In this document: positions 21,374-50,922 of the stretch, one piece after another | Position numbering within the stretch: the first letter of the stretch is position 1 | How the letters are laid out: every line of letters begins with the position of its first letter | Source of the DNA: Triglochin maritima | Lineage: Eukaryota > Streptophyta > Magnoliopsida > Alismatales > Juncaginaceae | Direction of reading: 5' to 3' | NCBI GenBank assembly: GCA_963682175.1 | Contig: OY821789.1 | Location: 5,766,001-5,830,000 of the forward strand | Length of the DNA stretch: 64,000 nt | The notes under the pieces: generated by a model | The model's database searches: none | What the model was told of the DNA's origin: nothing | The model's input: the letters and a program-made list of their open reading frames with translations, nothing else | Translations under genes and position numbers: made by a program

Positions 21374-21418
<45 letters not shown>

Positions 21419-26160: not shown

Positions 26161-26550
26161 CACAATGTAATATCCTAACCCTTGCTTATTGTGCTAATCT
26201 TGTTTAGGAGAGGATTAGTGGTGGATTGAGATGGACGGTTGAGATCGAATGTGGGTTTTGTATATAAGGTTAGATCTTTCTCTCTCCTCCTCACTCTTCA
26301 CTCTCTCCCTCTCTCACGATCTCTCTCTCACTCGTCCCTCTCTCTCTCCCTAGAGTTTCTTCGGTGCCGGTGGAGGCGAGGGTCGCTGTTGGAGTCGCCG
26401 GAGGAGCGAAGATCGTCGCTCGTAGTGTTCGCCGGAGGAGAGGAGGTTTCGCGAGGAGGCGCTCACCGTGGTTTCTTCCAAGGCTTCTTCAAGCCTTAAG
26501 GTATGTCAAACTTGCTTTCAAGCTCACCTATCATTAGTGTGGGAGTGGGA

Positions 26551-27118
26551 GCGGTCGACGGTAGGCCGTTTTGGCTCGTCGGACCTGCACAACGGTTTCT
26601 GCACTAAAATCGGTCGACCGGTATTATGGGTTCGGTCGACCGGTCGTAGTGTATTTTTGGGTGATTCCCTTGCACCGGTCGAACGATGCCCTTTGGGCGG
26701 TCGACCGGTTGTGCAATTTTAGCAAGAGGAAGACGTCCTAGTGCTTTTCGGTCGAACGGGACCCCTTTGCCGGTCGACCGAAAGTACTGTTGTAGGTCGG
26801 TTGGGGGCGTTGACCATCTAAACGGTCGACCGCTCGTTGACTTCGTCCGACCGGCGTTTAAGTTAACTTATTGGCCGGTCGACCGGTAGTGTTGTTTCGG
26901 TCGACCGTGGAGATCGTTTGTTTGGAGGTTTGTACTGGAGGTTTTCGGTCGACCGTGAGTGTTGGGTCGGTCGACCGTTGGTGTTTGATTTGCGAAAATG
27001 TTTTCTTACTGGGGCTTTTCGGTCGACCGGGCCCCCTTTGCCGGTCGACCGATTGGCGGGTTTTTTCGGTTGGGCCAGTTCTCTAGGTGAGAATCGGTCG
27101 ACCGATTAACAGTTTTCG
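26551..27118. repeat. Palindrome array (CGGTCGACCG) in solo LTR
   Basis: About 15-20 copies of CGGTCGACCG or close variants (CGGTCGAACG, GTCCGACCGG) occur here. Many are in pairs about 22 bp apart, such as 26610/26632 and 26748/26770. The pairs recur at about 70-75 bp. The same arrangement is found in the other related LTRs of this window. Confidence 0.9.
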
Positions 27119-27164
27119 TTCGACCGTTTCTGCTGTTTTTGGCGGATTCGTGGTTTTATGAGTA

Positions 27165-27520
27165 CACTTGACGGCACCTCGTCTCTCCGGCCTCACGGGG
27201 GGCAACGACACGGACTGGCGCCCGATAGTTAGGTGCTCGTACACTTGAAAGTGGCTCGTCTCTCCGGCCTCTTGGGCAACGGCACGGACTGTCGCCCGAT
27301 AGTGGTATGAGTAGCGTGCGTTGTGGGGTTGGGGTGAGAGTACCCTTGAGACCCGTGGCCGATGATTTTCCGACGGTGCCTTGTGTGCACGTGTGTGTTG
27401 TGGGGTTGGGGTGAGAGGACCCTTGAGACCCGGTGGTGTGGCCGTGACTGTACCGGCGGTGCCGTGTGTGCACGAGTGTGTTGGTGGGTTGGGGTGAGAG
27501 GACCCCTGAGACCGGATCGT
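27165..27520. repeat. GC-rich tandem repeats in solo LTR
   Basis: Two copies of a ~73-bp unit (core CTCGTCTCTCCGGCCTC, with CGCCCGATAGT near its end) span about 27165-27305. Three copies of a ~75-80-bp unit (core GTTGGGGTGAGAG, then CCTTGAGACC) follow at about 27320-27515. They open spurious frames on both strands. A weak trace of the second unit is seen in the older LTR near 50430-50470. Confidence 0.85.
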
Positions 27521-27893
27521 GTCTGTGTGCTATTCATTATTCATTACATATTTCATTATTGTTCATATATGTGTTAGGGTTTGGCATACTGGGTTTCCTT
27601 CTGGAAACTCAGGCATTTATTGTCTGCTTTCAGGCCGTGAGCAGCGTTAGGAGGGGTGGTGACTGCGGAGGAGAGCTTCTGGGACAGATCCTGCTTTCCC
27701 CTCCTTTTGAGGTCGTTGTGATTACGTTGTATATTTTATCTTATAGCTTTTGATGTAATCACCTCTTGTTGTAAACTCAGATCTGTATATATATATATAC
27801 GTTGGTGCACCTAGTGTATTTCTTGGTAATGTCCTCCGTTGTTTGTATGTTTAAAATTTAAAATTTTCCGCTGTTCGAGGACGTTACACACAA

Positions 27894-31844: not shown

Positions 31845-31890
<46 letters not shown>

Positions 31891-32602
31891 GCAGAAATCA
31901 GATTTTGAGGAAAATGGTGGGCAAAGCTTCTAGATTTTAGGGCAATGGGCCATATGTAGCAGAAGTGGAACAATCACTGAGAAGGCAAATATATATGGGA
32001 TGGGAAGATAGCCTGCAAACTAGGTTCAATTGTACTTGTTCTAGCAGACATTTCATTACATAATCTAGTCTCTCACCCACCCACATGATATGTAGTGATA
32101 CTAACTGTAAATTTCTTCCAAGTTTCTTACCTGCAAAGAAAGTGGAGGAAGGCTTTATAGTTCAGTAAAATTTTCACCACCATTTCTTAGCTTTACAATC
32201 AGACTAATTTCCTAAAGTTAATGGCCAGTTAGACAACACTGCACTTCAGACAAACACCTATAAACAAATGAGAGCATACCATCTTAAAATTCCACATCTC
32301 TGAACCCACATCATGGCCTAGCTGTATGCATGTGTATTGGATCCAGAAACTCTGGGTCTTTCTCTACACTCCCACACTCACCCAATCACAAGTAGCAAAT
32401 CCTTCTTAAAAAATAACAAGTAAAGACCATCCATATCTTCTCCCTCTTCTTCCATTTGTGTTCAAAATTCAGCAAAAACCATCCACCACAAATCTCCCCC
32501 TCAACCCTTCCTCAACCCTTCCTCATTATGTCAATTAAGCTCCCATAGAAAGCAACAGTTATAGTGACAACCAAATATTTGTCTAACACTACAGGTATAG
32601 TA
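27894..32602. other. Intergenic and receptor-kinase promoter region
   Basis: No gene is supported in this 4.7-kb stretch. It ends in the 5' flank of the receptor-kinase gene. TATAAACAAATGAGAG near 32261 may be its TATA box. The CT-rich leader at about 32437-32530 is typical of a plant 5' UTR. Short open frames (28696-28890, 31250-31447) lack any recognisable domain. Confidence 0.5.
31845..31889. repeat. 45-base G homopolymer
   Basis: An uninterrupted run of 45 G residues follows GGTGGTGG about 750 bp upstream of the receptor-kinase start codon. Its exact length should be treated as uncertain, because long G runs are error-prone in sequencing. Confidence 0.9.
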
Positions 32603-34651
32603 ATGCCTAGTGCAGTGGATTCGTGGAAGAAGAAGAAGAAAGAGAAGTATCGCCTTACGTTTCTGTTGGTCATATCTATTCTGCTATTCAATGCGTCTCT
32701 TGCAATCGACGACCAAGGAAAGCTGCTTTTGTCATGGAAGACAGACCTCGGCGGTTCGATACCAGCAATGTTGAATTGGAACCCTGCAGATCCCAACCCG
32801 TGCCGGTGGAACGGAGTCTTCTGCAATGCCGACCAAGTGGCAAGGGTCAGCCTTTCCGGAGCAAACCTCTCTGGACCGATTCCGCCACAATTAGGTAGTC
32901 TATCCCAGCTCACCGAACTAGACCTTAGCAGCAACGCCCTCACCGGCAAAATACCTGTCGAGCTTTTCGCGTCATCCAGCAAGCTCGAGAAGATCTTCCT
33001 TAGCACAAACAAACTTCAGGGGCCAATCCCGGATAATATCGGTAACCTCACATCTCTCCAGTGGCTTGTCATTTACGACAACCAACTCGATGGAGTAATC
33101 CCAGCGTCAATTGGGAAATTAGGTAGCTTGGAGATCATCCGTGCCGGCGGCAACAAGAACCTCCACGGCCCTCTGCCTCCGGAAATCGGAGATTGCACTA
33201 ATCTCACTATGCTAGGACTCGCCGAGACAAGCATCTCCGGAAAGCTCCCATCGGAGTTGGGGAGATTGAAGAAATTACAGACTCTGGCCATCTACACAGC
33301 TCTTCTCTCGGGTCCGATTCCACCGGAATTAGGCCAATGCGAGGAGCTCCAGAACATCTACCTCTACGAGAACGCCCTCTCCGGTTCCATTCCGTCCGAG
33401 ATCGGGAATTTGAAGAAGCTGAAGAATCTACTCCTATGGCAGAACAGTCTGGTCGGCGTTATCCCACCCGAACTCGGAGCCTGCGGCGACCTAACGGTGA
33501 TCGACCTCTCGATGAATACGATCACCGGGACGATCCCGCCGGGCATAGGCAACCTCTCCAGTCTGCAAGAACTCCAGCTAAGTGTGAACGAGCTCTCCGG
33601 TCCAATCCCACGGGAGCTCTCGCGGTGCGGGAATCTCACCAATTTGGAACTCGACAACAACGCAATAGACGGAGACATCCCGGCCGAGCTCGGACAATTA
33701 CCGAACCTCCGGCTGCTGTACCTGTGGCAGAACAAGCTCGAAGGGAGCATTCCACGGGAGATAGGCAACTGCTGGAATCTGGAAGCCATTGATTTCTCTC
33801 AGAACAGCCTCACCGGGGCAATTCCGGAAGGAATATTCCGGCTTTCGAGTCTCGGGAAACTACTGCTGTTAGGCAACGAGTTATCCGGACACATACCGGA
33901 GACAATCGGGCATTGCTCGTCATTAGTCAGATTCCGGGCGAATAAGAACCACCTTACCGGGGGGATTCCGGCGGGGATCGGAATGTTGAAGAAACTCAGC
34001 TTCCTAGATCTCGGCGACAACCGTCTCACCGGCGTAATCCCGACGGAGATTGGCGGGTGCACGAATCTCACCTTTCTCGATCTGCATTCCAACCGGATTA
34101 CCGGAGCGCTCCCCCCGCCGGCGATTTCCAAACTCGTCGCCCTCCAATTCCTCGACCTCTCCGACAACAACATCGACGGACCGCTCCCTCCGAAGCTCGA
34201 ATCCCTCGCCTTCCTCACGAAGCTCATCCTTTCAAACAACAACTTCTCCGGTCCAATTCCCCCCGAAATTGGATCCTGCGAAAAGCTTCAGCTCCTCGAC
34301 TTAAGCCAAAATTTGCTTTCCGGTCTGATCCCGGCAACGATCGGGAATATTCCGGGATTGGAAATCGCTCTCAACTTAAGCTGTAATGATCTCTCCAGCG
34401 AAATCCCTCCCGAGTTTGCGGAGCTCGTCCGGCTCGGCGTGCTCGACCTCTCATATAACAACCTCTCCGGCGGTCTCCACCCCCTCTCCAACCTCCAGAA
34501 CCTGGTGTCTCTCAACCTATCCCATAACAACTTCTCCGGGAACCTCCCGACGTCGCCGTTCTACTCCAAGCTCCCCGTCGGGGACCTCGACGGAAACCCA
34601 TTCCTCTGCCTCTCCGGCTGCTCCTCCGCCGCCAGACCTGTAATAACCTAA
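32603..34651 (+). pseudogene. LRR receptor kinase (RGI3/SKM2-like), 5' part: ectodomain, truncated by retrotransposon
   Basis: From the ATG at 32603 the frame encodes a basic start (WKKKKKEKYR), a hydrophobic signal peptide ending near SLA (about residue 36), and an LRR N-cap with the cysteine pair in NPCRWNGVFC. Roughly 25 plant-type leucine-rich repeats (LxGxIPxxLG) and a C-terminal cap ending in LCLSGCSSAA follow. After 677 host residues the reading enters the LTR at 34639, adds five residues (RPVIT) and stops at 34649-34651. The predicted product is a 682-aa secreted ectodomain with no membrane anchor. The repeats resemble subfamily XI receptors RGI3 and SKM2, which bind small peptides (RGF or CLE type); the actual ligand is unknown. 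The rest of the gene continues in the same frame at 43193, after the insertion. Confidence 0.9.
34634..34638. repeat. Target site duplication AGACC (left)
   Basis: AGACC stands immediately before the 5' LTR and again at 43193-43197 immediately after the 3' LTR. Five-base duplications are standard for LTR-retrotransposon integration. It falls within a coding triplet pair (Arg-Pro) of the receptor kinase. Confidence 0.97.
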
Positions 34652-34999
34652 ACTAAACATCATAATTAAATTAAACTAAACTTACTTAACCTAATTAATG
34701 CATGCATGTGAGAGTAGGAGGTGTTGGAAGGATGAGATGGAAAGTAACGTGTAGGATAGTGGTGAGGTTGTGATGCTAGCTTGTGATTGGAGGAGAGGGA
34801 GGTGAGATAAGGTGTGTGTATATATGTAGATTTGCTGTGAAGCGGGAGAAGGTTTTGGCTGGATAAGGATATTAGAAGTGAGGTGAGTCGGAGGAGGCAG
34901 TAAGGAGAGAAGAAGAAGAAGAAGAAGAAGAAGAAGAAAGGAAGAAGAAGAGAAGAAGTCTTGAAGGGAGCTCGGGAGGCTTCTTCACTCGACCAAAAG

Positions 35000-36327
35000 G
35001 TATGCCAAATCTTCAATATAACTCACTTGTGCCTTGTGAGTGTTGGGGATCGACGTTGGTGTCGAATTCCCCGTCGGAATTCAACCAATTCAGAGGTTGA
35101 AGACGACGATCGGTCGACCGGTGCCTGTGGGCAGTCGACCGATCCTATTATTATATTGTTGTTTACCTGCGAACGGTCGAACGATGTCGTTAGACGGTCG
35201 ACCGTTATGCCAGATTTGTGCGGGAAAAAGGGGATATGCTGTTATCGGTCGAACGGGACCACTCAGCCGGTCGACCGAATAACGATGAGAATGGGTCGGT
35301 TGGGGATTTTGACTTATTAAACGGTCGAACGTCCTTTACCTTGTTCGACCGATCCATTCGATGCTAAGTCGGTTGGGAGCTTTGACCATCAAAACGGTCG
35401 ACCGCTCTTTAACTTTCGGTCGACCGACTGAGCATTTAATTAAGCGGTAGAGTGCTTGTGTTGTTTCGGTCGAACTGTATTTCAGTTCCGGTCGACCGAA
35501 CGAGACTTGGGCAAAATATTGAAAGTCCTGTTATCGGTCGAACGGCCCCTTGGTTCGACCGGTCGGATATATATATTATATAAAATTGTATAGCGTAGAC
35601 CTTCCAAACGGTCGACCGCTAGATGACTTTTGTTCGACCGATTGGTCGGTAATTCGGTTGGCGTGGTTCGACCGGTAGATTTGTTTGTACAGTACTGTGT
35701 ACTGTGTGGGGGACCGGTCGACCGGTGTGCTTGTAGCGGTCGACCGATCTGCCGCAGGTTGGTGGATTTATCCACACGCGATCCGTCGATGTCAGGTCGA
35801 CTACCGGCTCCGAGGCGACGGTTGATTACCGGCTTTGAGAGCTACGGATTTCACCTTCGACGAAGGCGTATTATTGTTGTACCTTTTTCCTCTCTTACCG
35901 AGCGGGGTGTGAGGGATGTGTACCGTAAACCTTGGGCAGTTTGCGAGGGTTTAGCGGTAGGCCGAGGATGTTCCGGCAGGGTGCGCGCTAGGCGACTCTT
36001 GGGGGAGCAGTGGCTGTCGTCTGACCCGAGTTGTGTATTCGGCGGGCTGACTCGCTCCTTGGGTGCGGCGTGTACCGGGGGTTCCTTCCTGCACTTTTTG
36101 GGGAGCAGTGGTGTCGACTGACCCTTGTGAGGCAGCGGTGGACTGACTTGACCCTAGTGACAGGAGTGGTTCAGTGCCGCGGAGGCGGTGAGGGCATTAT
36201 TGTGGGCCCGAGGCGGATGATCATGTGCATAGCATTGCATTGTATTTAATTCCTTTTTATATTTTAGGAGGTTTGGTATACGGGGTTCCTGCAGGGAACT
36301 CAGGCATGTTTGTTGTTTGCATTTCAG
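35000..36327 (+). promoter_or_regulatory. Possible leader intron within 5' LTR
   Basis: GTATGC at 35000, after a purine-rich AAAAG, and the acceptor-like TTTGCATTTCAG ending at 36327 bound a 1328-bp segment that contains the whole palindrome array. The same pair is kept in the 3' LTR (41589 and 42916) and in the solo LTR (26501 and 27633). In the degraded LTR the donor has decayed (AAAAAGTATG near 49731) but the acceptor-like TTTCAG ending at 50650 is kept. Conservation across diverged family members suggests the sites are functional, but no transcript data are available. Confidence 0.4.
35111..35746. repeat. Paired palindrome array in 5' LTR
   Basis: About 19 copies of CGGTCGACCG or variants lie here. 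Paired starts are near 35111/35132, 35174/35195, 35246/35268, 35322/35343, 35395/35417, 35467/35489, 35535/35553, 35609/35631 and 35714/35737. Spacing within pairs is mostly 21-23 bp and between pairs about 63-76 bp, so the array is a diverged ~72-bp tandem repeat. The first member of a pair is often CGGTCGAACG and the second CGGTCGACCG. A weaker GTCGGTTGGG often follows. Each full palindrome has three CpG sites and a GTCGAC core. Confidence 0.92.
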
Positions 36328-36606
36328 GTAGCGAACAGGGTTAGAGTTTGAGGTGGTGACCGAGGACGGTACCCCCGAGATCGGATCCTGTAGTGTCTTC
36401 TTCTTTTGAGGTGATTACATGTTGTATAGCTTTTGTTGTAATCACAGTCAGTCGGTATAGTCTGTATAGTTGACTTCCACGTGGGTCTGTACATTATATA
36501 TTTTATATATATATGTTGGTTATTTTCCCGTGACGTGTCCAGTGTTGACCGTTGACGGTCTTTATTATTGTTTAAATTTTCCGCTGTTTTCGGGTACGTT
36601 ACAATT

Positions 36607-36618
36607 TGGTATCAGAGC
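36607..36618 (+). other. Primer binding site for tRNA-Met initiator
   Basis: TGGTATCAGAGC begins four bases after the 5' LTR ends. It is complementary to the 3' end of plant initiator tRNA-Met, the usual primer for minus-strand DNA synthesis in this lineage. Confidence 0.96.
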
Positions 36619-36726
36619 GTTGATCTCGGCGTACTTGTCCAAAGAAACCACCTTTGAGTTAGGAATTAGGTCTAGAGGATCATGCATGCACAGATTATAT
36701 TGATATTGTCTTGTTTCCTTTGGCAG

Positions 36727-39700
36727 ATGCCTCCTAGACGGGAGAAGGCGGTTGCCCATACTCGCGGTGAGAGTGAGACTGCGAGGGATGAGGCTTGGGA
36801 GGATGAGCGTCGGACGTTGTTCGATACGGTCGGACGTCTGACGGAGATGCTACAGCAGCAGACAGCACAGACTGGGCAGACGGGGACTGGCGCTATGCAT
36901 GACCGGTTTATGCGCCAGCATCCGCCTACCTTTCTGGGGCAGTACGACGCGGAGGCTGCGGAGGAGTGGATCTTCACGATGCAGAAGATCTTCAGTGCTA
37001 TTGGTTGTCCTCCAGAGGCGAGAGTGGGCCTGGCTACTTATGTTTTGGGCGGTGCTGCGTCCAACTGGTGGAGGTCCACATCTGCAGTGGTGTTTGCGGA
37101 CAGAGATGATATAGCCTGGGAGGAGTTCGTTGGCGAGTTCAACGAGCAGTATTTTCCGCAGCATGTTCAGGACGAGAAGAGAGAGGAGTTTCTGAGTCTT
37201 CAGCAGGGAGACATGACCCTGGCAGGCTACATCGGGAAGTTCAACGCCCTTGAGCGTTACTGTCCCGAGATGTACGTTACGCAGGAGCAGAGAGCAGGGA
37301 AGTTCGTCCGAGGGCTCCGGAAGCAGTTGAGGACGAAGGTGCTGACACACATGCCACGCACATTAGCTGATGCGGTGAAGAGTGCTACTGTTCTTGATCG
37401 TGACTACAGAGAGAACTACCAGGATGAGAGGAGGCCATCGGGTAGATTCTCTGGGCGGCCGGGAGGTCAGACTGGAGGGAATCCGGGCAAGAGGCCCAGA
37501 TACGAGGGAGCAGGAGTTGCAGTACCACGACCTGAGCCTTGTGGTACTTGTGGGAGGTTTCACTCCGGGCCGTGCTTCACCCCCGGAGCGTGTCATGGTT
37601 GTGGCCAGATGGGTCACTTTATCAGGAGCTGTCCGAGCCGAGGAGCTGGGCCGAGCCGACCACCGGGTTTACCCGCACCAGGCAGAGGAGGAGGCGGAGG
37701 TAGACCACCTTTCAGACCACAGCAGGGGCAGCGCACCGGCAGAGTTTATACCATCCAGGCAGAGGAGGCTCGTGATGGAGGCGCTGTCGTGGAAGGTACA
37801 CTTCTTATCGCAGGTTCAGTAGCTAGGGTGTTATTTGATTGTGGCGCGACACACTCGTTCATCTCAGAGCGATTTGCGGGAGTGTTGGGCTGTACCCTTG
37901 CGATGTTGACTGCCACTTTGGAGGTCAGCACACCCCTGGGTCTGGTGGGCACTGTGGGGAGATTTGTCCCCGGCGCCACGGTTGTTTCGGGAGATCAGGA
38001 GTTTCCGGCAGACCTGGTCTTACTACCGATGGAGGACTTTGATGTCATACTTGGGATGGATTGGCTGTCCCAATATGATGTTCGAGTCTTGTGCCGTGAG
38101 AAGAAGATTTTGATCCCGAGGAAGGGTTTGCCTGATATTCTGATTAGAGGGATCAGAAGCAGAGGGGGTCGCATTATTGTATCTGCTGTGAGAGCTCAGA
38201 GACTGTTACAGCAGGGATGTGCAGCATTTCTGGCGACGCTTGTGGTTGCGGAGGCAGAGTCCCAGAGGCTAGAGGACATTGAGGTGGTGCAGGAGTTCGC
38301 GGATGTTTTTCCAGCGGAGATTCCAGGTTTACCACCACACCGGGAGTTGGAGTTCGGCATTGAGTTGGTAGCCGGCACTACACCACAGTCGAAGGCTCCA
38401 TACCGGATGGCACCTGCTGAGTTGACAGAGTTGAAGAAGCAGTTGCAGGAGTTGATGGACTCTGGATTTATCAGACCGAGCGTCTCGCCTTGGGGTGCAC
38501 CAGTTTTGTTTGTGAAGAAGAAGGACGGATCCTTGAGGATGTGCATAGACTACAGGATGCTGAACCAGGTGACGGTGAAGAATAGGTATCCCTTACCTAG
38601 GATTGAGGACCTCTTTGACCAGCTGCAGTCAGCGAAGGTTTTCTCGAAGATTGACCTGCGTTCAGGATATCACCAGTTGAGGATCCGAGATGAGGACATC
38701 CAGAAGACAGCCTTCAGGACGAGATATGGACACTATGAGTTCTTGGTGATGCCATTTGGATTGACGAATGCTCCGGCAGCGTTCATGGATCTGATGCACC
38801 GGACATTCAGGCAGTACATTGATATATTTGTGATTGTCTTCGTGGATGACATCTTGATCTATTCACCAGATGTGGAGCAGCACAGAGAGCATCTGAGGAT
38901 TGTACTCAGCATCTTGAGGGCTCAGCAGTTATATGCTAAGTTCTCAAAGTGCGAGTTTTGGATGGACAGAGTGGCGTTCCTCGGACACATTGTATCGGCA
39001 GAGGGGATATCAGTGGATCCGGCGAAGGTAGAGGCGGTGACACAGTGGAGGACCCCTACGAGCGTGACGGAGATTAGGAGCTTTGTTGGACTGGCGGGTT
39101 ATTACCGTCGCTTCATCAAAGACTTCTCGAGATTGGCAGCACCACTGACAGCTCTGACGCAGAAAGGAGTCACTTTTGTTTGGTCGCAGAAGTGCGAGGA
39201 CAGCTTTCAGGAGCTGAAGAGACTGTTGACCACAGCACCAGTTTTATCATTGCCGAGTGGCACGGGTGGATTCGTGATTTATAGCGACGCTTCAGGGATT
39301 GGCTTAGGATGTGTACTTATGCAGCACGGGAGGGTGATCGCGTACGCATCCAGACAGCTGAAGGTCCATGAGAGGAATTACCCGACACATGATTTGGAGT
39401 TAGCAGCAGTGGTTCATGCACTGAAGACCTGGAGACACTATCTTTATGGCGAGCGGTTCGAGGTGTTTACAGATCATCAGAGTCTGAAGTACCTGTTCTC
39501 GCAGAAGGAGCTGAACATGAGGCAGCGCAGATGGCTTGAGTTCATTAAGGACTATGACTTCACTATCTCTTACCATCCGGGGAAGGCGAACACAGTTGCA
39601 GACGCTTTGAGCCGGAAGGTGGAGGTATCAGTAGCAGGCCTATGCATTCAGGAGTGGAGACTGCTGGAGTCTCTAGCAGAGTGGAGGCCATTTGCAGATA

Positions 39701-41169
39701 GCTCTGAGGGTGCAGTGATTGCCGGATTGAGAGTAGAGCCTCAGACAGTATCAGCAGTGATTCGTGCTCAGACTACAGATGAGGAGTTGAGCAGTTTGTT
39801 ACAGTTAGCTGCCAGAGATGAGTCAGACTTCAGAGTTGGAGTGGATGGAGGTCTGAGATTCAGAGACCGTATCTGGGTGCCGAAGACAGAGGACCTGAGA
39901 CATGATATCATGGAGGAGGCACACAGATCGAGATATTCCATTCATCCAGGGAGCACCAAGATGTACAAAGATCTGCAGCGGAACTTCTGGTGGCGAGGTA
40001 TGAAGAAGGACGTTGCAGACTTCGTGTCGAAGTGTTTGGTCTGTCAGCAGGTGAAGATCGAGCACCAGAGACCAGCAGGGCAGATGCAGAGGATTGAGTT
40101 GCCCGAGTGGAAGTGGGAGCACGTGACGATGGATTTTGTTACGGGGCTACCGAAGACACGGAGATTCCACGACGCGATTTGGGTTATAGTCGATCGACTG
40201 ACCAAGTCGGCGCATTTCTTAGCTATTAAGACCACTCTTGCTCTGGAGGGTCTAGCTAAGTTATATATTGAGGAGATTGTCAGACTTCATGGCGTACCAG
40301 TCAGTATTATTTCAGACAGAGATCCCAGATTCACTTCGAGATTTTGGGAGAGTCTACACAGAGCACTGGGGACACGTCTGAAGTTTAGCACAGCTTTCCA
40401 CCCACAGACAGATGGCCAGTCAGAGCGGACGATACAGACTTTGGAGGACATGCTGAGAGCGTGTACACTTGACTGGGCAGGACATTGGGATGAGCATTTG
40501 CCGTTGATCGAGTTCGCCTACAACAACAGCTACCACTCGAGTATTGGGATGGCACCCTATGAGGCATTATACGGGAGACCGTGTAGATCGCCGGTATGCT
40601 GGAGTGATGTGGGCGAGAGACAGCTAGTTGGACCTGACATTATCCAGTTGTATTCAGAGAAGGTCGACGTGATTCGGAGACGACTAGCTACGGCGCAGAG
40701 CAGGCAGAAGAGTTATGCTGATACGCGGAGGCGTGAGCTGACTTTTGAGGTAGGAGATCATGTCTTCCTGAAGATCTCGCCTTCCAGAGGGGTGATGAGA
40801 TTCGGGAAGAAGGGGAAGCTGAGTCCGAGATATGTCGGACCTTTTGAGATATTGGATCGGGTCGGTGAGGTGGCATATAGGATTGCACTACCACCACAGT
40901 TCGCAGGACTTCACAACGTCTTCCATGTTTCTATGTTGAGGAAGTACGTGGCCGATCCAGCTCATGTGATAGAGATATCAGTACCGGAGATCCAGCAGGA
41001 TTTATCATTAGATGAGAGACCAGTTGAGATTGTGGATCAGATGGTACATCAGCTCAGGAGGAGAGCGATTCCGATGGTGAAGGTCAGGTGGCAGCATCAC
41101 ACTGACAGAGAGGCTACCTGGGAGATCGAGGAGGATGTCAGGAAGCAGTATCCAGAGTTGTTTCGGTAA
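36727..41169 (+). CDS. Gag-Pol polyprotein of Ty3/gypsy element, 1480 aa
   Basis: This single uninterrupted frame starts at the ATG of MPPRREK, the usual Tekay-type Gag start; an in-frame ATG at 36682 would add 15 residues. The Gag/capsid region spans about residues 55-230. A CCHC zinc knuckle ([14 protein letters not shown]) begins at residue 289. The aspartic protease site is near 371 and reads DCGATHSF, with Cys where DS/TG is commoner. Reverse transcriptase follows with FVDD at about 706-708. RNase H carries its first catalytic Asp in SDAS near 854. Integrase has the HHCC zinc-binding region starting near 1066 and the DDE triad at about D1136, D1197 and E1233. A GPY/F-like segment (RYVGPFEIL) and a chromodomain-like tail ([13 protein letters not shown]) end the protein. 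No stop or frameshift is seen, so the copy appears coding-competent. It copies and integrates the element. Confidence 0.96.
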
Positions 41170-41205
41170 GTCAGTTGTTTCGAATTTCGCGGACGAAATT
41201 CTTTT

Positions 41206-41217
41206 AAGGAGGGTAGA
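41206..41217 (+). other. Polypurine tract
   Basis: AAGGAGGGTAGA lies one base before the 3' LTR, which begins TGTAATAACC at 41219. It is the plus-strand DNA primer site expected in LTR retrotransposons. Confidence 0.92.
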
Positions 41218-41218
41218 T

Positions 41219-43192
41219 TGTAATAACCTAAACTAAACATCATAATTAAATTAAACTAAACTTACTTAACCTAATTAATGCATGCATGTGAGAGTAGGAG
41301 GTGTTGGAAGGATGAGATGGAAAGTAACGTGTAGGATAGTGGTGAGGTTGTGATGCTAGCTTGTGATTGGAGGAGAGGGAGGTGAGATAAGGTGTGTGTA
41401 TATATGTAGATTTCCTGTGAAGCGGGAGAAGGTTTTGGCTGGATAAGGATATTAGAAGTGAGGTGAGTCGGAGGAGGCAGTAAGGAGAGAAGAAGAAGAA
41501 GAAGAAGAAGAAGAAGAAGAAGAAGAAAGGAAGAAGAAGAGAAGAAGTCTTGAAGGGAGCTCGGGAGGCTTCTTCACTCGACCAAAAGGTATGCCAAATC
41601 TTCAATATAACTCACTTGTGCCTTGTGAGTGTTGGGGATCGACGTTGGTGTCGAATTCCCCGTCGGAATTCAACCAATTCAGAGGTTGAAGACGACGATC
41701 GGTCGACCGGTGCCTGTGGGCAGTCGACCGATCCTATTATTATATTGTTGTTTACCCGCGAACGGTCGAACGATGTCGTTAGACGGTCGACCGTTATGCC
41801 AGATTTGTGCGGGAAAAAGGGGATATGCTGTTATCGGTCGAACGGGACCACTCAGCCGGTCGACCGAATAACGATGAGAATGGGTCGGTTGGGGATTTTG
41901 ACTTATTAAACGGTCGAACGTCCTTTACCTTGTTCGACCGATCCATTCGATGCTAAGTCGGTTGGGAGCTTTGACCATCAAAACGGTCGACCGCTCTTTA
42001 ACTTTCGGTCGACCGACTGAGCATTTAATTAAGCGGTAGAGTGCTTGTGTTGTTTCGGTCGAACTGTATTTCAGTTCCGGTCGACCGAACGAGACTTGGG
42101 CAAAATATTGAAAGTCCTGTTATCGGTCGAACGGCCCCTTGGTTCGACCGGTCGGATATATATATTATATAAAATTGTATAGCGTAGACCTTCCAAACGG
42201 TCGACCGCTAGATGACTTTTGTTCGACCGATTGGTCGGTAATTCGGTTGGCGTGGTTCGACCGGTAGATTTGTTTGTACAGTACTGTGTACTGTGTGGGG
42301 GACCGGTCGACCGGTGTGCTTGTAGCGGTCGACCGATCTGCCGCAGGTTGGTGGATTTATCCACACGCGATCCGTCGATGTCAGGTCGACTACCGGCTCC
42401 GAGGCGACGGTTGATTACCGGCTTTGAGAGCTACGGATTTCACCTTCGACGAAGGCGTATTATTGTTGTACCTTTTTCCTCTCTTACCGAGCGGGGTGTG
42501 AGGGATGTGTACCGTAAACCTTGGGCAGTTTGCGAGGGTTTAGCGGTAGGCCGAGGATGTTCCGGCAGGGTGCGCGCTAGGCGACTCTTGGGGGAGCAGT
42601 GGCTGTCGTCTGACCCGAGTTGTGTATTCGGCGGGCTGACTCGCTCCTTGGGTGCGGCGTGTACCGGGGGTTCCTTCCTGCACTTTTTGGGGAGCAGTGG
42701 TGTCGACTGACCCTTGTGAGGCAGCGGTGGACTGACTTGACCCTAGTGACAGGAGTGGTTCAGTGCCGCGGAGGCGGTGAGGGCATTATTGTGGGCCCGA
42801 GGCGGATGATCATGTGCATAGCATTGCATTGTATTTAATTCCTTTTTATATTTTAGGAGGTTTGGTATACGGGGTTCCTGCAGGGAACTCAGGCATGTTT
42901 GTTGTTTGCATTTCAGGTAGCGAACAGGGTTAGAGTTTGAGGTGGTGACCGAGGACGGTACCCCCGAGATCGGATCCTGTAGTGTCTTCTTCTTTTGAGG
43001 TGATTACATGTTGTATAGCTTTTGTTGTAATCACAGTCAGTCGGTATAGTCTGTATAGTTGACTTCCACGTGGGTCTGTACATTATATATTTTATATATA
43101 TATGTTGGTTATTTTCCCGTGACGTGTCCAGTGTTGACCGTTGACGGTCTTTATTATTGTTTAAATTTTCCGCTGTTTTCGGGTACGTTACA
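41219..43192 (+). repeat. 3' LTR, 1974 bp
   Basis: It is identical to the 5' LTR apart from two substitutions and nine additional GAA-repeat bases. It repeats the TATA-like box (near 41401), the donor-like site (41589), the palindrome array and the acceptor-like site (42916). Its end, GGGTACGTTACA, abuts the right target duplication. No in-frame stop lies between 43157 and the host kinase sequence, but the upstream triplet there is TTG, not ATG. Confidence 0.96.
41700..42335. repeat. Paired palindrome array in 3' LTR
   Basis: This is the same array as in the 5' LTR, shifted by 6589 bases. All palindrome copies appear unchanged between the two LTRs; the one nearby difference (CCTGCG versus CCCGCG) lies just before a palindrome. 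Confidence 0.93.
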
Positions 43193-44934
43193 AGACCCGT
43201 CCGCAAATCTGCTGGTGTTGCCGCCGCAGTTCTCATCTCCGCCGCTGTCGCCCTCCTCGCCGCCGCCGCCTTCCTCATCCTCCTTAAACGCCGGACGGAG
43301 AAAAGAAACGCGGAACGCAACGGATTGGATGACGTGGACATGGGCCCACCGTGGGAGGTGACGTTGTACCAGAAACTAGACATAACCGTCGCTGACGTGG
43401 CAAGAAAGCTGACGTCAGCGAATGTGATCGGGAAAGGCTGGTCCGGTACCGTCTACCGGGTGACTCTACCATCCGGATTCACAGTAGCGGTGAAGCGATT
43501 CCGGTCCACCGACGACTTGGGTGTCGCGGCTTTCGGCCGCGAAGTGGAGGCGTTGGCTAGAGTTAGGCACCGGAATGTGGTCCGGTTGCTCGGGTGGGCG
43601 GCGAACCGGAAGACTAGATTGCTATTCTACGACTTCTTGCCAAACGGGACGCTGGGGGAGGTGCTTAGAGGGGCGGCGATGGAGTGGGAGACGAGGCTGG
43701 AGGTGGCGTTGGGGCTGGCGGAGGGACTTGCTTATTTGCACCATGATTGCGTCCCACCGATCATGCACCGCGACGTTAAGGCTGATAATGTTTTGCTCGG
43801 GGAGAGGTTCGAGGCTTGTCTTACGGATTTCGGGCTTGCGAGGGTGGTGGATGAGGGGAGGCGGCAGGAGCGTGGTGACGGCTCGCCTCACTTAGCTGGC
43901 TCATACGGTTACATGGCTCCAGGTTAGTAGTATGGTTTAAATTTCGCGACCGTTAATTCAGTTACAGATGGTGTTCACTTTGAGTGGTGGTTGAGTCTGA
44001 GCTTGGTTTAACTAGACTTCGAGTTGAAATCATACAGATCGAGATACAAACCCAAGTTTAAGGTCATGATGTTATTAAGTTACAAACCCAAGTTAATTTG
44101 AAGTAAAAATAGATACCCTACGGGCCTGAGTTTTGCCTTTTATTCCATTTGGATAGGCTTGGCTTTGCTAAGAAGAGCTCAGCATGGTAAATAATATATA
44201 TCAATTCCGATGATATTTGTTGTTGAAGTTTCTCAACACGTGTGTGGTGAAATCAAAACATTCTTCTCCGGAAATCAGCTTTAAGTATTTTACTTGTAAC
44301 TGAGTTCGTATTTTAATAACCTGTGTCTGGACTTAATCTAAATCTTAGTCACTATTTAGCTCCATCCTGAGTTGGAATTTGACTTCAGAAAGATTGATTC
44401 CAGCTACTAATTAAAGATCTTTAGTTAGTGTTAGAAATAGCTGCTTGATTTGGTACAACAATTGGTCTGAATTCTATCTTCGTGTATACAGAGTACGGGT
44501 GCATGATGAGAATAACCCGCAAAAGCGACGTCTACAGCTACGGTGTGGTCCTGCTAGAGATCATCTCTGGCAGAAAAGCAGTCGAAAGTTCCTTTGGCGA
44601 AGGTCAAGGGATCGTCAACTGGGCAAGAGAGCAATTGAGAAGTAAGAAAGATCCAGTAGAAGTTATCGACAAGCGAATGCAAGGCCGACCAGACCCGCAT
44701 GTCCAAGAGATGCTACAAGTGCTTGGGATCGCCTTGCTCTGCTGTAGCAACCGTGCTGACGACCGACCGACCATGAAAGACGTGGCCGCTCTGCTGCAAG
44801 AGATCCGACACGACAGCGCCTCCGGAGACAACTCCAGTAAGAAAAGATCCGGGTCCGACTCGTGGAGACACCCGCCCCAGCAACAAATCACGTTACCATT
44901 CACGTCGTCTAACAGTAATAGTTTAAACCTGTGA
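43193..44934 (+). pseudogene. LRR receptor kinase (RGI3/SKM2-like), 3' part: membrane segment and kinase
   Basis: The host gene resumes after the insertion in the same frame as the 5' part. Two exons, 43193-43922 and 44492-44934, join through a GT-AG intron at MAP/E. The peptide opens with RPVRKSAG and a transmembrane segment (AAAVLISAAVALLAAAAFLI). It then has WEVTLYQKLD, a glycine-rich loop (GKGWSGTVYRV), VAVKRF with the ATP-binding Lys, HRDVKADN near 43766, DFG at 43826 and MAPE across the splice site. The kinase is of the RD type with all key residues. The C-terminal tail is Ser/Gln-rich and ends NSLNL. Without the insertion the full receptor would be 1067 aa, a normal length for the subfamily. 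As it stands this part has no start codon before Met at 43340, which precedes the kinase domain. Confidence 0.9.
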
Positions 44935-46068: not shown

Positions 46069-46234
46069 CTTTCTGTGTGATCTTAATCCTTGTTTAGTAT
46101 TTTAATCAAGTTTAGGGTGATGTTACAAAGAGGTTTGAGGTGGATGACTGAGATTGTTTGAGGACAAGAGTATATAAGGTTTGACTCTCTCTTTCACGTC
46201 TATCTCCCTCTTAGTCTCTGAGTTTGGTGGTGAA

Positions 46235-47995
46235 GTTGAAATGAATGTATTCTAGAAGTTTTACTTTTATATGTCAATTGTTATGAATTGGATGTGCAAA
46301 CATTTTGTTCATTGATTAATGTATTCGTCTTTTGGAAGTGTTAATGAAGAAGTTCCTTAATCGTAGAACTCTAAAAGATAATGGTTTACATAAATCAAAA
46401 GTTATTCACAATCATAGCAATTAACATGAAATATTAATTCCCGAGATAAGATTGTCACGTTGTCATCGATTATTGTAGCTCTAAAAATATTTGACGACAT
46501 GAGTATATAAAAGAGGAAAATATTACTTTTATATATTGAATAGACCTAACAAGTAAAACATTATGGAATTGTGTTATGTGTCATTAATGTTTTACTGTGT
46601 CTTGGATCCTAAGATAAGAGACATCTTTTCACATAAGGAGTGCTTAATTTGATTATTGTCAAAAGCTATCAATGAGTATGACTTATGCTAGTTGGTTGAA
46701 CATGACTTATGCTGGAAAAGATAGCTAGTCAAAAGATTATCATTGCCCTATTAATTGAGTAATGATATTAGTGGATCCCTTGATAAAGCAAAATTATAAT
46801 GTGCACAATGTGACTTGAGTTAAGTTACATGTATAGTTATAATTAGCTTAAAGAGATTAAGAAATGAATATAATACAAAGGTGACACATTTCTACTTTGT
46901 ATATATTCTTAATATCACGAGGCAATGGATAGACACAAGTGGTGCACTTACATCACTAAATGGATCGTGTTTAGTTGGAGTGGAATAAGACATCTATGCT
47001 AATTGGGTAACTATAATGTATAGCTAGATACCGCTTATAGTTTGAGATATTGAGTGTTTAATATCACTGTCAATTTAACTTAGATCCTCCTATAGGTCAC
47101 ATCACAAAACTGGGAACACAAGAAGCTTGATTTTGAGTTCATATGATGTGTCGGGTTTCATGTGAAAATGGACACATGTGGTGAATCAATACATCAATAT
47201 GTCACGAAAAATGACATAATTAGAATTATGAATAAATTAATATAAGATGTATATATTATGGGGTGTAATAATTTAACATTACATAAGATAATATATTACA
47301 TGATATATGAATTTGCTAAAAACCCCAAAGATCAAATTTTGTTGGATATAAATCCAAATTTTGGTAAAAGGCAAAAAACGATTAATACGGTTTTGCCCGA
47401 ATTAATAAGGAATTAATATTAATCATGTATTTGAATTATTCCAATTATGGTTAAATGTAGATGATTATGTGTCAAATTGTGATTGATTTTATGGAGTATT
47501 AAAATAAGAGGTCATGAGTTAGTGGTTAGCACATGATGTGGGTGTTGGAAGACCCTATAAATAGGTATTCTCTCCCTCTTTGTTTTAATTAATACAAAAA
47601 TTTCTCTCTCCCTAATCACCATATTAATTCATCCTAAAATTCCTTAATTATTTCAAGCTTTTGGAGATTAAATTCTCAGAGAGCATAAATGGGTTATTAG
47701 CTTAATTCTAAACTTGATTTTAGAGATTTAATTGACTAGCTCATTTCTCTTTAATCTTGTTTAGAGTTTGGTGAATACTTAGATTCGAATCGGCAGACGA
47801 TTCGACGGGCAGCAGAACTCCGGATCTTCAAAAAGGTTTTAGAGAACCTTTGGGTATGAAAATATCTTTGTGATTTATTTTAACATATGTAGGATTGCAT
47901 GATATTAGAATAAACACAAAACAATGTACATAAAATCACTGAAAATATGAAATCGATCATGTATGCTTGTATTAATTTTTTTTAAATATACACAT
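46235..47995. mobile_element. AT-rich insertion in the old LTR, possibly a copia-type LTR
   Basis: This block interrupts LTR homology and has no coding frame. It has a TATAAATAG box near 47557 followed by a CT-rich leader, as in an LTR promoter. Boundaries are approximate. A start at TGAAATGAATG after GAAGT and an end at CCTACA before AAAGT would give a 4-of-5 target duplication, but I do not regard this as proven. Confidence 0.4.
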
Positions 47996-48114
47996 ACATA
48001 GAGACACAAAATCCTACAAAAGTGTCCCGGAGAAGAAGAACAAGAAGGAGGAGGAGGAGGAGGTTCGTTGTTGAGACGACGAGGTGGTGTGGTCATCGAT
48101 CGAGAGAAGTTTAC

Positions 48115-49646
48115 TGATTGGCATCATTTCATGTTTATATTTGTATCTTATATCCATTATCTTTCACCTAAACAATGTTATGTTACGAGTTTTATGTTTA
48201 GTTTTCAGGAATAAATAGGTTTGAAGAGATGAAGCATAAAAGGACTCAAAAGCTGGGAAAAAGACTTAATTGTGAGATCTGGGGACTAAGATGCAAGGGA
48301 GAATGACCTGAATGTAAGACAGAAGGACCTAAGAGCCGAACAGAATACTCCACACCATCATGAGGAGTATTTTACCAATTCGATTCGGGTCGGAGCTCCA
48401 ACAAGTCAAGTAACCGCATTAAAGACCAACAATACCAGAAAGAAAAGCCTAACAAATTCCAACGCGATCCAAAGTGTTTGGACCGCTAATTGGCGGTCCA
48501 TATTACTCAGGATCCACCCAAATTTCTCCTGGACTTGTATTAATGTTCGTTTAGGCTATTTGTGGTATTGGTTTAGTCCCACATCGGGGGATTGTCCCCG
48601 ATTAGCTTTTTCTATGCTTATAAATAGAACTCTTCACCTTCCATTGTAATTACCCATTGCTTGGTGACATTCTCTCTACTAAGGAGTGAGCCTTGAAGCA
48701 AAAACTCAAGGTGGAGAAGAATACTACCTTCAATGTGAGTCATTTGTTAATAAAATAATTCTTCTAGTTTCTTTTAATCTTGTCTTTTAATTTGTGCATG
48801 TTTATTTAATCTTTCCTTTCCTTTTAAGCTTCTTTAATACTTCTTGCTTTCTTAGTTAACTTTCATTTCAGTATTATGCTTTCTTTTGTTAATATAGTTA
48901 GTGTAATGAGTAGTGAGTAGTTTCATCCACATTTGGGGGGTGGAGAAATATGTGATATAATCATGTAGTATATTAAGTGTGTGTTATCTTTATCCCTTGA
49001 GCTTTATATGATTTCCATAACCATCTAATGGGTTTTCACTTTTATCTTTGATATGCTAATGCTCTTGAATGAAGCTTAGTTTATGCTTTGACTAGTGGAC
49101 CTATTTTATGGGGAATGATAAGATCAGGATAAGGATGAAGTTAATATTGGAAACACAATTTGTGGTGTATGTGCTCTTGTTGCCTTTACCTTAGCTAATG
49201 TCTTGTATGTTTTAATGATATAGTCTTATCTTAATTCATGTGGAGGCATATTAGGGTCTAGTCTTTATACTTGAGTTCATGTAGCTTCATTCCAATTATT
49301 GTCTTGTATGTTTTAATGATGTAGTCTTATCTTAATTCATGTGGAGGCAAAGTTGGATGTAGTTTTATGATTTCATGCACTACATGTTGTAAGGAGCTTA
49401 ATGAACACACACACACTTCTTTATGTTCACATTATTTCTCTACCCCCTACGGGGCTTAGTTTTATTGCTTATCTTCATTTCCTTTTTGCATCTTAGTGTA
49501 GTTTAGTGTAACCAACCTTTCTCTCCTTCTTTTTACCTCTCGCCTTCAAACGAACCAATCGTCGACACACCTCCCAGTGGACGACCCATATTTGTCACCG
49601 CTTCAACGCGGTCGTGCACTTACGGTTAATATAAAACGATCAATCA
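48115..49646 (+). mobile_element. Solo LTR, 1532 bp, nested in the old LTR
   Basis: It starts TGATTGGCATC and ends AACGATCAATCA, giving a 6-bp inverted end (TGATTG/CAATCA). It is flanked by a perfect 5-bp duplication TTTAC (48110-48114 and 49647-49651). A TATAAATAG box near 48619 and a CT-rich leader follow TCCCACATCGGGGG. The segment near the end (CTCCCAGTGGACGACCC, TTTGTCACCGCTTCAACGCG) resembles LTR or leader sequences of large plant Ty3 elements such as the Tat/Athila group; that assignment is tentative. It contains a ~101-bp tandem duplication at about 49196-49350. No coding region is present. Confidence 0.82.
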
Positions 49647-49781
49647 TTTACCAGAGAAACGTGCATTTGCAAGGAAGTGCTCATGGAAACGATCGTCGTT
49701 GGTTCTTCTAAGGCTTCTTCAAGCCTTAAAAAGTATGTCAAGCTTTGTTTTTATGCTCATCTAAGATTGTGTGAATGTTTG

Positions 49782-50275
49782 AGTGGTCGACAGTACACCG
49801 AAAAACTCGTCGGAGGTGGTGTGCAATGAGTTCTGCACTGGAACGGCTGACTAGTCGTTGTGTTTTTGTGGAGAAGAAGAGGACTCTAGGTGTTTTCGGT
49901 CGAACGGATCCCTTTTGTCGTTCGACTGAATGCACTGTTTTATGTCAGTTGGGGGTGTAGACTTCAAAACGGTCGACCGCCCTGAGATCTTGTTCGACCG
50001 ATGACTTAAGATAACTTAGTGTTTGTTCGACCGATTTTTGTTTCGGTCGATCGGTGTATTTTGTTTCGATGTCTGGATTTACTGGCTTTATTCGGTCAAC
50101 CGTTTCTTTTGTTGTTTGACCGATTGTACACTTTGAGCGAAGGAAGGATTCACTGGATGTTTTCGGTCGAACGAGTCCCCTTTGTCGTTCGACTGGTTGG
50201 TAGTTATTTCTGTTGGACCAGGCTTTTGTGTGGGTTTTGGTCGACCGATTTTGCTCGTTTGTTTGACCATTTCTG
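49782..50275. repeat. Decayed palindrome array in old LTR
   Basis: About 14 recognisable sites remain, including CGGTCGAACG, GTTCGACCGA, CGGTCGATCGG, CGGTCAACCG, GTTTGACCG and GTTCGACTG. Many differ from CGGTCGACCG by a CpG turned to TpG or CpA. Pair spacing of about 20-23 bp is still visible for several. Confidence 0.85.
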
Positions 50276-50922
50276 CCTTGAGGGCAATGGGTCCCCGATC
50301 TTTTTTGGCAACAATACAGACATTTCGGCCTGATAGCGATCAATGGTTGTGGCTCTATAGAGCGGGTGCCTTGTGTACACGTGTGGTTCGTAAGTTGATG
50401 ATTTTCCAGCGTGTGTCTTGTGTGCACGAGTGTGTTGTGGGGTCGCAGTGGGAGGACCCTTGAGACCCAGTTTTGGTTTGTGTCAACTGTGGTTAGGAGA
50501 GAGGTCTTGGGAACCTAGTTTGACGGCGATGGTTGTGTTATATTGTTTTTTCCATGTTATGTCATGTTATTTAATTCATGCATTTTAGGAGTTTGACGTA
50601 CAGAGTTTTCCTTATAGAACACTCTGGCATAGTTTTATGTTGCATTTCAGGACATGAGCGTCGTTCGGAGGTGATGACTGAGGGTGAGTGCACCCAGACT
50701 AGATCATGTCTTCTTGTATTTTGAGGTGGATATGATTGCACTTGTATATGTTGTATATCTTTTGTGATGTGATTATACTTTCATTTCCATGCGTTGTACG
50801 GTGCACCACTCTATATATATGTGATTTTCATAGCGTCCCGGTTATTGATCTATTGATATATATATATATATATATCTTTTAAAGTTTTAAATTTGTTCGT
50901 TGTTTCGGGGCGTTACACTTTC

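What the first reader, a model, noticed from the sequence alone, without database searches (positions are those of the whole stretch)
35111..35746. LTR array of paired 10-bp palindromes at two-helical-turn spacing
The LTR carries about 19 copies of CGGTCGACCG or near variants. They are arranged as pairs with starts about 22 bp apart, recurring about every 72 bp. The two pair members differ consistently (often GAACG first, GACCG second). The same layout is kept in the 3' LTR, the solo LTR at 26.2-27.9 kb and, decayed, the LTR at 46.1-50.9 kb, although the sequence between palindromes is quite diverged. Conservation of palindromes and spacing against diverged spacers suggests a protein-binding array, for example for a dimeric factor on one face of the helix. 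I know of no described LTR with this arrangement. Function is inference.
Basis: partly seen in the sequence, partly recalled or inferred. Interest (0 to 1): 0.8.

Follow-up and report, generated by a model that had tools for sequence, protein, structure and literature searches.

The report
Paired palindromes in gypsy LTRs
A plant retrotransposon of the Ty3/gypsy type carries in its long terminal repeats a well conserved array of paired 10-bp palindromes of a kind described before for the unrelated copia-type Sireviruses, which suggests one DNA-binding factor shared by both, although binding itself is not shown.

Summary
The array is real: 19 sites within 2 mismatches of CGGTCGACCG (shuffles: mean 0.94, maximum 5), eight of nine pairs 20-22 bp apart, kept in the 3' LTR, a solo LTR and an older LTR. 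Spacers of one array are mostly near random, so it is no plain minisatellite. Gaps follow 10.5-bp phase in a genome sample (p=0.0023, one array per group), but not in gypsy arrays alone (p=0.155). It is not undescribed: Sirevirus (copia) LTRs carry palindromic RM boxes, one exactly CGGTCGACCG (PMC2829016). New, as far as I found: (1) the carrier is Ty3/gypsy, while copia elements of the same genome carry similar arrays; (2) a donor-like splice site precedes the array in six of six gypsy-type LTRs, an acceptor follows in five, so it may lie in an LTR intron; (3) lineages keep pair spacings of 22 or 19. Best reading: sites for a dimeric host factor acting on the LTR promoter.

The parts
34639..36603 (+). 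5' LTR of element A (TGTAAT...GTTACA)
   Evidence: self-BLAST 99.4% with 41219-43193; termini and duplicated flank AGACC read from sequence
35111..35746 (.). palindrome array, 19 sites: 9 pairs plus one single
34819..34826 (+). TATA-like TATATATG upstream of the donor (weak candidate; higher-scoring TATA-like strings lie inside the array and near the LTR end)
   Evidence: recalled weights
35000..36327 (+). putative LTR leader intron: donor AAG|GTATGC at 35000, acceptor TTGCATTTCAG|G ending 36327 (another acceptor-like site ends at 36267)
   Evidence: donor rank 1 of 186 GT, acceptor rank 2 of 136 AG (recalled weights); both aligned with B and C
36607..36618 (+). primer-binding-site-like TGGTATCAGAGC just after the LTR
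   Evidence: sequence; match to initiator tRNA-Met recalled
36682..41169 (+). single long ORF, gag-pol, 1495 aa, Ty3/gypsy domain order, weak chromodomain at the C end
41219..43192 (+). 3' LTR of element A
41700..42335 (.). palindrome array in the 3' LTR
26166..27888 (+). solo LTR B, 5-bp flanks CACAA
26552..27126 (.). palindrome array of LTR B (8 pairs plus 26552)
26501..27633 (+). putative intron of LTR B (AAG|GTATGT ... TGCTTTCAG|G)
   Evidence: donor rank 1 of 175, acceptor rank 1 of 82
26261..26268 (+). TATA-like TATATAAG followed by a CT-rich stretch in LTR B
   Evidence: sequence
46080..50917 (+). LTR C, decayed and split by an insertion (46080-46219 and 49685-50917 match B; first base approximate)
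49784..50269 (.). decayed palindrome array of LTR C
49733..50650 (+). putative intron of LTR C (AAA|GTATGT ... GCATTTCAG|G)
   Evidence: donor rank 1 of 140, acceptor rank 1 of 65 in 49500-50917

Best explanation
The array is a cis-regulatory module of a plant Ty3/gypsy retrotransposon. Each 10-bp palindrome is a site for a dimer that reads CGGT and ACCG half-sites, two dimers sit as a pair, and successive pairs lie on roughly the same face of the helix, so that a filled array acts as one surface that raises (or times) transcription from the LTR. In this gypsy lineage the array lies downstream of the likely promoter, in an intron of the LTR leader, and would act as an intronic enhancer that is removed from the translated mRNA and kept in the unspliced RNA that is reverse transcribed. 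Copia (Sirevirus-like) elements in the same genome carry similar arrays, so the factor is most likely a host protein (element A has a single long ORF, gag-pol). Shown: sites, spacing, conservation, phasing in the pooled sample, conserved splice-like signals, presence in both superfamilies. Inferred: protein binding, dimer, host origin, promoter position, splicing, effect on transcription.
For: Strong excess over shuffles. 28 arrays: 0 of 5320 palindrome cells differ against 82 of 12483 spacer cells; 0 of 26 substitution columns in palindromes, p=1.4e-4, although 51 CpG lie in palindromes and 14 in spacers. Mean spacer identity between units of one array 0.23-0.44 by lag. In 200 kb of sampled genome CGGT-N2-ACCG occurs 101 times against about 1.2 expected; N1, N3 and N6 give 0, N4 5, N5 13; six control palindromes 0 or 1. 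In 25 pairs of the 17-19-bp class the middle two bases differ in 28 and 26 of 50 sites, the other eight positions in 0-5, as expected of two half-sites read by a dimer. Longer gaps phase at 10.5 bp: 49 gaps of nine arrays, 0 of 10000 null draws at either kernel width; one array per group, p=0.0023, best of five periods tried. Donor and acceptor aligned in A, B, C and, on LTRs not used to form the idea, donors in three of three and acceptors in two of three. Copia carriers.
Against: No binding protein identified; no expression, RNA or chromatin data. Gypsy arrays alone are not significantly phased (15 gaps, p=0.155), and one pair is 17 bp apart. The 19-bp class does not fit two full turns; its longer gaps give about 0.06 at 10.5 and 0.004-0.007 at 11. 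RNA folding signals exist that a pure DNA model does not need. L033 lacks a matching acceptor, and the donor of L037_3242 ranks second. The part after the acceptor is more T-rich than the putative intron in A, B and C, the opposite of a typical plant intron. TATA-like strings also occur inside the array of A and near LTR ends, and L033 and L037_3242 have none good upstream. The 28 arrays are 28 of the 40 best-scoring of 2162 first-look candidates, several of them two LTRs of one insertion, hence young and related.
Confidence: 0.55

Rival explanations
1. RNA (or single-strand) hairpins: each palindrome can pair with any other copy, so the transcribed array folds and feeds small-RNA production or structures the leader; conservation is for pairing.
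For: Folding far better than shuffles: z -11.1 (A, 20 shuffles), -8.8 (B, 100), -4.1 (C, 100). Flanks of a pair are more complementary to each other than to other units' flanks, p=0.013, with a control of opposite sign. In A, real spacers fold better than shuffled ones with palindromes kept, z -3.5, 0 of 60. In maize Sireviruses small RNAs are reported in excess on palindrome clusters (PMC10760457, passages seen, citing a 2016 paper not held).
Against: In B the palindromes alone explain the fold (z -0.46, 20 of 60). No association between position 8 of the left and 3 of the right member: A/T 4, A/G 5, C/T 6, C/G 8. A hairpin does not require each copy to be a palindrome by itself, yet each is; in the 19-bp class the middle bases of partners vary freely. 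Phase at 10.5 bp is not needed for RNA pairing.
Confidence: 0.2
2. The array is the target of an anti-silencing or chromatin factor (VANC-like logic): it keeps the element's control region hypomethylated rather than activating a promoter directly.
For: CpG-dense sites intact in 28 arrays; the older copy C has lost sites mainly by CpG transitions, 11 of 20 deviations. VANC targets are short motifs in tandem repeats in noncoding parts of TEs (PMC10398659, passages).
Against: Element A has one long ORF, gag-pol; apart from a 166-codon reading frame on the other strand inside it no ORF of 150 codons or more lies between the LTRs (shorter ones not examined), so the factor would have to act in trans. 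No methylation data.
Confidence: 0.12
3. Neutral minisatellite: repeats spread by slippage and are kept alike by gene conversion.
For: Local duplication did occur: spacer identity between units four steps apart reaches 0.52 (A), 0.80 (B) and 0.68 (C), and 0.68 at lag 3 and 0.64 at lag 1 in A.
Against: Mean spacer identity is near random while the 10-mers are intact; 0 of 26 substitution columns in palindromes; the same half-sites in copia elements.
Confidence: 0.05
4. On origin, not function (so not exclusive of the above): the gypsy lineage took the array from a Sirevirus by recombination, or the reverse, rather than evolving it separately.
For: Same 10-mer, same 22-bp pairs, and the same C8A variant on inner half-sites in copia L035/L044; unmasked gypsy-copia matches down to E 3e-7 (A with L044_369).
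Against: With palindromes masked these matches vanish at E 1e-4. This is weak: masking also removes the matches of A and B to L033 and L037, which are related by their LTR 3' parts.
Confidence: 0.25

Closest known systems
Sirevirus LTR repeated motifs (RM boxes), Bousios et al. 2010, PMC2829016 (passages of several sections; outline and abstract)
   Same: Palindromic, high copy number, CGG-CCG core, clustered in LTRs, diverged flanks; Vitis Sirevirus RM is CGGTCGACCG, 12 copies (10 in the 3' LTR), 87.4% identity
   Different: Carrier there is Ty1/copia; boxes lie upstream of the TATA box and of env; the passages I saw describe no pair grammar, helical phase or intron
Maize Sirevirus palindromes and small RNAs (PMC10760457 passages; the 2016 source paper not held)
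   Same: Palindrome clusters in the LTR control region
   Different: Different palindrome; no small-RNA data here
VANDAL/VANC anti-silencing targets (PMC10398659 passages)
   Same: Short motif in tandem arrays in noncoding TE DNA
   Different: VANDALs encode the binding protein; element A has one long ORF, gag-pol
BARE two-RNA-pool system with two TATA boxes and splicing (PMC3735527 passages)
   Same: Spliced RNA for translation, unspliced RNA for replication
   Different: BARE is a copia element (recalled); its intron is at the end of gag, not in the LTR; here splicing is predicted only

Membership tests
Sirevirus (Ty1/copia) | copia domain order, integrase before reverse transcriptase | tested here: not met
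   RT 611-771, RNase H 834-958, integrase 1070-1241 in element A
Sirevirus (Ty1/copia) | palindromic RM array with CGG-CCG core in the LTR | tested here: met
   Table 3 passage
Sirevirus (Ty1/copia) | RM cluster shortly upstream of the TATA box | tested here: inconclusive
   gypsy LTRs: TATA-like upstream of the donor in A, B and L037_8798, but also inside the array of A and near LTR ends; copia L038 has TATAAATA 97 bp after the array
Sirevirus (Ty1/copia) | further RM cluster upstream of env in the internal part (env-bearing members) | tested here: not met
   no site with 0-1 mismatch in 36604-41218; copia L044 does have a cluster between pol and a weakly Transposase_32-like ORF
Sirevirus (Ty1/copia) | multiple polypurine tracts before the 3' LTR | not tested
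   not examined
Ty3/gypsy chromovirus (Tekay/Del type) | Ty3 domain order | tested here: met
   RT piece matches plant proteins, several named Ty3-gypsy by their sources
Ty3/gypsy chromovirus (Tekay/Del type) | chromodomain at the integrase C end | tested here: inconclusive
   Chromo E 1.9e-4, 21.7 bits, cut-off 25.1
Ty3/gypsy chromovirus (Tekay/Del type) | Tekay clade by RT phylogeny | not tested
   no reference tree made; Tekay is recalled from LTR length and ends
Minisatellite | units alike over their whole length | tested here: not met
   mean spacer identity 0.23-0.44 by lag, single comparisons up to 0.80
VANC-type self-encoded anti-silencing | element encodes the motif-binding protein | tested here: inconclusive
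   one long sense ORF, gag-pol; ORFs under 150 codons not examined
Spliceosomal intron | good donor and acceptor at matching places | tested here: met
   donor 6 of 6 LTRs, acceptor 5 of 6 (recalled rounded weights)
Spliceosomal intron | intron more U-rich than its exons (plants) | tested here: not met
   T 0.29/0.30/0.37 in the putative introns of A/B/C against 0.37/0.38/0.41 after the acceptor and 0.23/0.32/0.29 before the donor
Spliceosomal intron | spliced RNA | not testable with these tools
   no transcript data

The most novel reading that the evidence does not exclude
Two unrelated retrotransposon superfamilies in one plant genome have converged on (or exchanged) one regulatory code: dimer sites CGGT-N2-ACCG set in pairs of fixed spacing and phased on one helical face, read by a single host factor. 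Copia elements place it upstream of the TATA box and before env; the gypsy lineage places it in an intron of the LTR, so that splicing separates translated RNA from replicated RNA while the DNA array drives the promoter from inside the transcript.
Probability: 0.33. Interest if true: 0.75.

Novelty: new variant of a known kind. Interest (0 to 1): 0.55.

Why it matters
The 2010 Sirevirus paper found no common binding factor for its palindromes (passage). The same 10-mer in a gypsy LTR, with constraint visible in young copies and phased spacing in the genome sample, says the code is not a copia peculiarity and makes the factor searchable: one probe (a 32-bp pair) might pull it down. If one host protein serves both superfamilies, its loss should quiet many of this genome's retrotransposons at once. 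An LTR intron holding the enhancer would be a simple solution to the conflict between translation and replication of retrotransposon RNA.

Tried and rejected
Compensation test for hairpins inside the palindromes: no association. Helical phase of all site positions in single arrays depended on the period chosen and was replaced by a gap test. Rfam on the LTR: 0 matches. RT piece in IMG/VR: nothing. LBD/LOB factor lead: one search with no paper, one with three unhelpful ones by title; no factor is named. Outer-versus-inner half-site asymmetry: 0 of 170 against 18 of 170 mismatches in A and B, but in 54 pairs of the genome sample 44 against 61 of 540, p=0.37, with L033 the other way (5 against 1); only the single change C8A (22 inner against 5 outer G3T) and copia L035+L044 (17 against 40 of 260, p=0.029) repeat it. 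I do not build on it. One search used a wrong right partner for the last pair of C; corrected (the position-8/3 counts came out the same).

Literature: listings seen for (empty); passages of PMC2829016, PMC11656987 (one passage), PMC10760457, PMC3735527, PMC10398659; outline and abstract of PMC2829016. That I found no description of such arrays in Ty3/gypsy LTRs rests (listings, 20 of 34, 15 of 60 and 10 of 16 shown); that I found none of an intron in a plant LTR leader rests (15 of 25 and 10 of 23 shown).

Full report
What is there. Element A is an 8.55-kb LTR retrotransposon (34639-43192) with LTRs of 1965 and 1974 bp, flanks AGACC on both sides, a primer-binding-site-like TGGTATCAGAGC, and one long ORF of 1495 aa. 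Pfam gives gag, protease, RT, RNase H, integrase in Ty3 order, with a weak chromodomain at the C end. An RT piece matches plant retrotransposon proteins (7966 scored, a capped set, all with E up to 0.001; 120 listed). The LTRs differ by 2 substitutions and a 9-base GAA-repeat indel, so the insertion is young. A search of the own genome (1.063 Gb, 167 contigs) with the array gave 2162 first-look candidates, of which 40 were scored, all at 99-100% identity.

The array. 19 sites within two mismatches of CGGTCGACCG, 9 exact, nine pairs and one single. The solo LTR B (12 exact sites) and the older LTR C (1 exact) share the layout. Of C's 20 deviations in six pairs 11 are CpG transitions, as expected of decay after insertion.

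Selection. 28 arrays of the young family were aligned: the window's 5' copy plus 27 others; L001, the window copy itself, was left out as a duplicate, and several rows are the two LTRs of one insertion. 26 columns have substitutions and none lies in the 190 palindrome bases of 636 (p=1.4e-4); in cells 0 of 5320 against 82 of 12483 (cells share descent). Of 29 variable columns (3 with gaps) 10 are seen in one row only, so most variants are shared and older than the insertions. Between diverged LTRs, palindrome-masked alignments give site against spacer identity 0.88/0.62 (A-B), 0.85/0.70 (B-C), 0.57/0.66 (A-C), 0.82/0.77, 0.82/0.69, 0.84/0.65 (gypsy-type L033/L037), 0.89/0.77 (copia), 0.77/0.74 (copia-like), 0.79/0.80 (19-bp class): 7 of 9 favour sites, not all independent. 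Without masking 9 of 9 do, but there the sites help to make the alignment.

How common. Twenty 10-kb stretches at positions I fixed beforehand, mostly mid-contig, hold 16 arrays of at least 5 sites in 10 stretches; five stretches at random positions hold 2 arrays in one: 18 arrays in 11 of 25. The mid-contig choice may favour repeats. In the first 200 kb CGGTnnACCG occurs 101 times against 1.2 expected; the middle is CG in 53 and TG in 17. CGGT-N5-ACCG occurs 13 times and N4 5 times, unexplained.

Who carries it. Copia proteins (Retrotran_gag_2, gag_pre-integrs, rve, RVT_2) were found in L032, L035, L038 and L044, 4 of the 10 array-bearing stretches (no copia domain in the ORFs scanned from L029, L033, L034, L037, L045; L030 has no open stretch of 130 codons). 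L044 has one cluster between pol and a weakly Transposase_32-like ORF and another beyond it, the Sirevirus plan of PMC2829016. L033 and both L037 arrays are linked to A, B and C by the LTR 3' part; no gypsy protein was found in those stretches, so 'gypsy-type' rests on LTR similarity. With palindromes masked no gypsy-group array matches a copia array, but neither do A or B match L033 or L037 there, so the test is weak and does not decide between convergence and old transfer.

Spacing. Of 79 neighbouring sites 17-23 bp apart in the 16 arrays, 32 are at 22, 15 at 21, 22 at 19, 4 at 20, 3 at 18, 3 at 23. Longer gaps (24-70 bp) in nine 22-class arrays gather near 33, 42, 51 and 63 bp; the phase statistic at 10.5 bp is met by 0 of 10000 null draws. 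With one array per group (six arrays, 35 gaps) p=0.0023 with the peak at 10.5 of five periods tried; copia-type alone (20 gaps) 0.0018; gypsy-type alone (15 gaps) 0.155. A plus B earlier gave 0.015-0.019. The 19-bp class is weaker at 10.5 (17 gaps, about 0.06) and better at 11 (0.004-0.007).

The intron. In A, B and C the best-scoring donor of the stretch scanned (ranks 1 of 186, 175, 140) lies before the array, 111 and 110 bp before the first full pair in A and B, and the acceptor ranks 2 of 136, 1 of 82 and 1 of 65; A's top acceptor, ending 36267, also aligns with TTAGG in B and C. The 30-column windows around donor and acceptor are among the best 14% and 10% of the three-way alignment, not extreme. 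The idea was then tried on LTRs not used to form it: donor AAG|GTATGT or GAG|GTATGC at -140, -132 and -136 in L033 and the two L037 LTRs (ranks 1, 2, 1 in 450 bp), acceptor TTTCAG|G rank 1 in both L037, absent at the matching place in L033. Upstream of the donor B and L037_8798 have TATATAAG/TATATAAC and CT-rich tracts; A has only TATATATG; L033 and L037_3242 have no good TATA. L037_8798 looks like a solo LTR (TGTTAAG...GTTACA, flanks TGAAC). The weights were recalled and rounded. T content speaks against a typical plant intron: the part after the acceptor is more T-rich than the putative intron in all three LTRs, and ATGs are not rarer outside it in A.

RNA structure. Arrays fold far better than shuffles, which self-complementary copies make likely in any case. 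Beyond that the evidence is mixed: spacers help in A, not in B; flanking complementarity p=0.013, mean z -0.75, -0.96 and -0.29 in A, B and C, with a control of opposite sign; no compensation inside the sites.

Judgement. The new content is the gypsy carrier, the possible intron, and the spacing grammar. Binding, splicing and function are inferred.

Noticed in passing
32564-34651 and 43157-43927: Element A sits inside a receptor-kinase-like gene: LRR domains upstream, protein kinase domain downstream, with duplicated flank AGACC.
   Followed up: partly
4-903 and 57713-58186: 22-bp tandem repeats TGTCCGGAATAAG... at 57.7-58.2 kb and a complementary-looking unit at 0-0.9 kb, facing each other across the window; perhaps subterminal repeats of a large DNA transposon.
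   Followed up: no
21388-21418 and 31845-31889: Pure G runs of 31 and 45 bases; possibly real, possibly assembly artefacts.
   Followed up: no
46220-49684: LTR C is split by an insertion of about 3.5 kb.
   Followed up: no
27316-27513: 83-bp tandem repeat, 2.5 copies, in the putative intron of LTR B after the palindromes.
   Followed up: no
L029-L048, 200 kb: CGGT-N5-ACCG occurs 13 times and N4 5 times while N1, N3 and N6 give 0: perhaps further palindrome classes.
   Followed up: no
L038:5257-5833 and L038:8879-9455: LTR pair beside a copia gag whose sites are mostly CGGTnnACCG at 19-bp spacing with a free middle dinucleotide.
   Followed up: partly
L045:1-8844: Long direct repeats with a step of about 2.3 kb and open stretches up to 1528 codons; no Pfam match for the two stretches scanned.
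   Followed up: no
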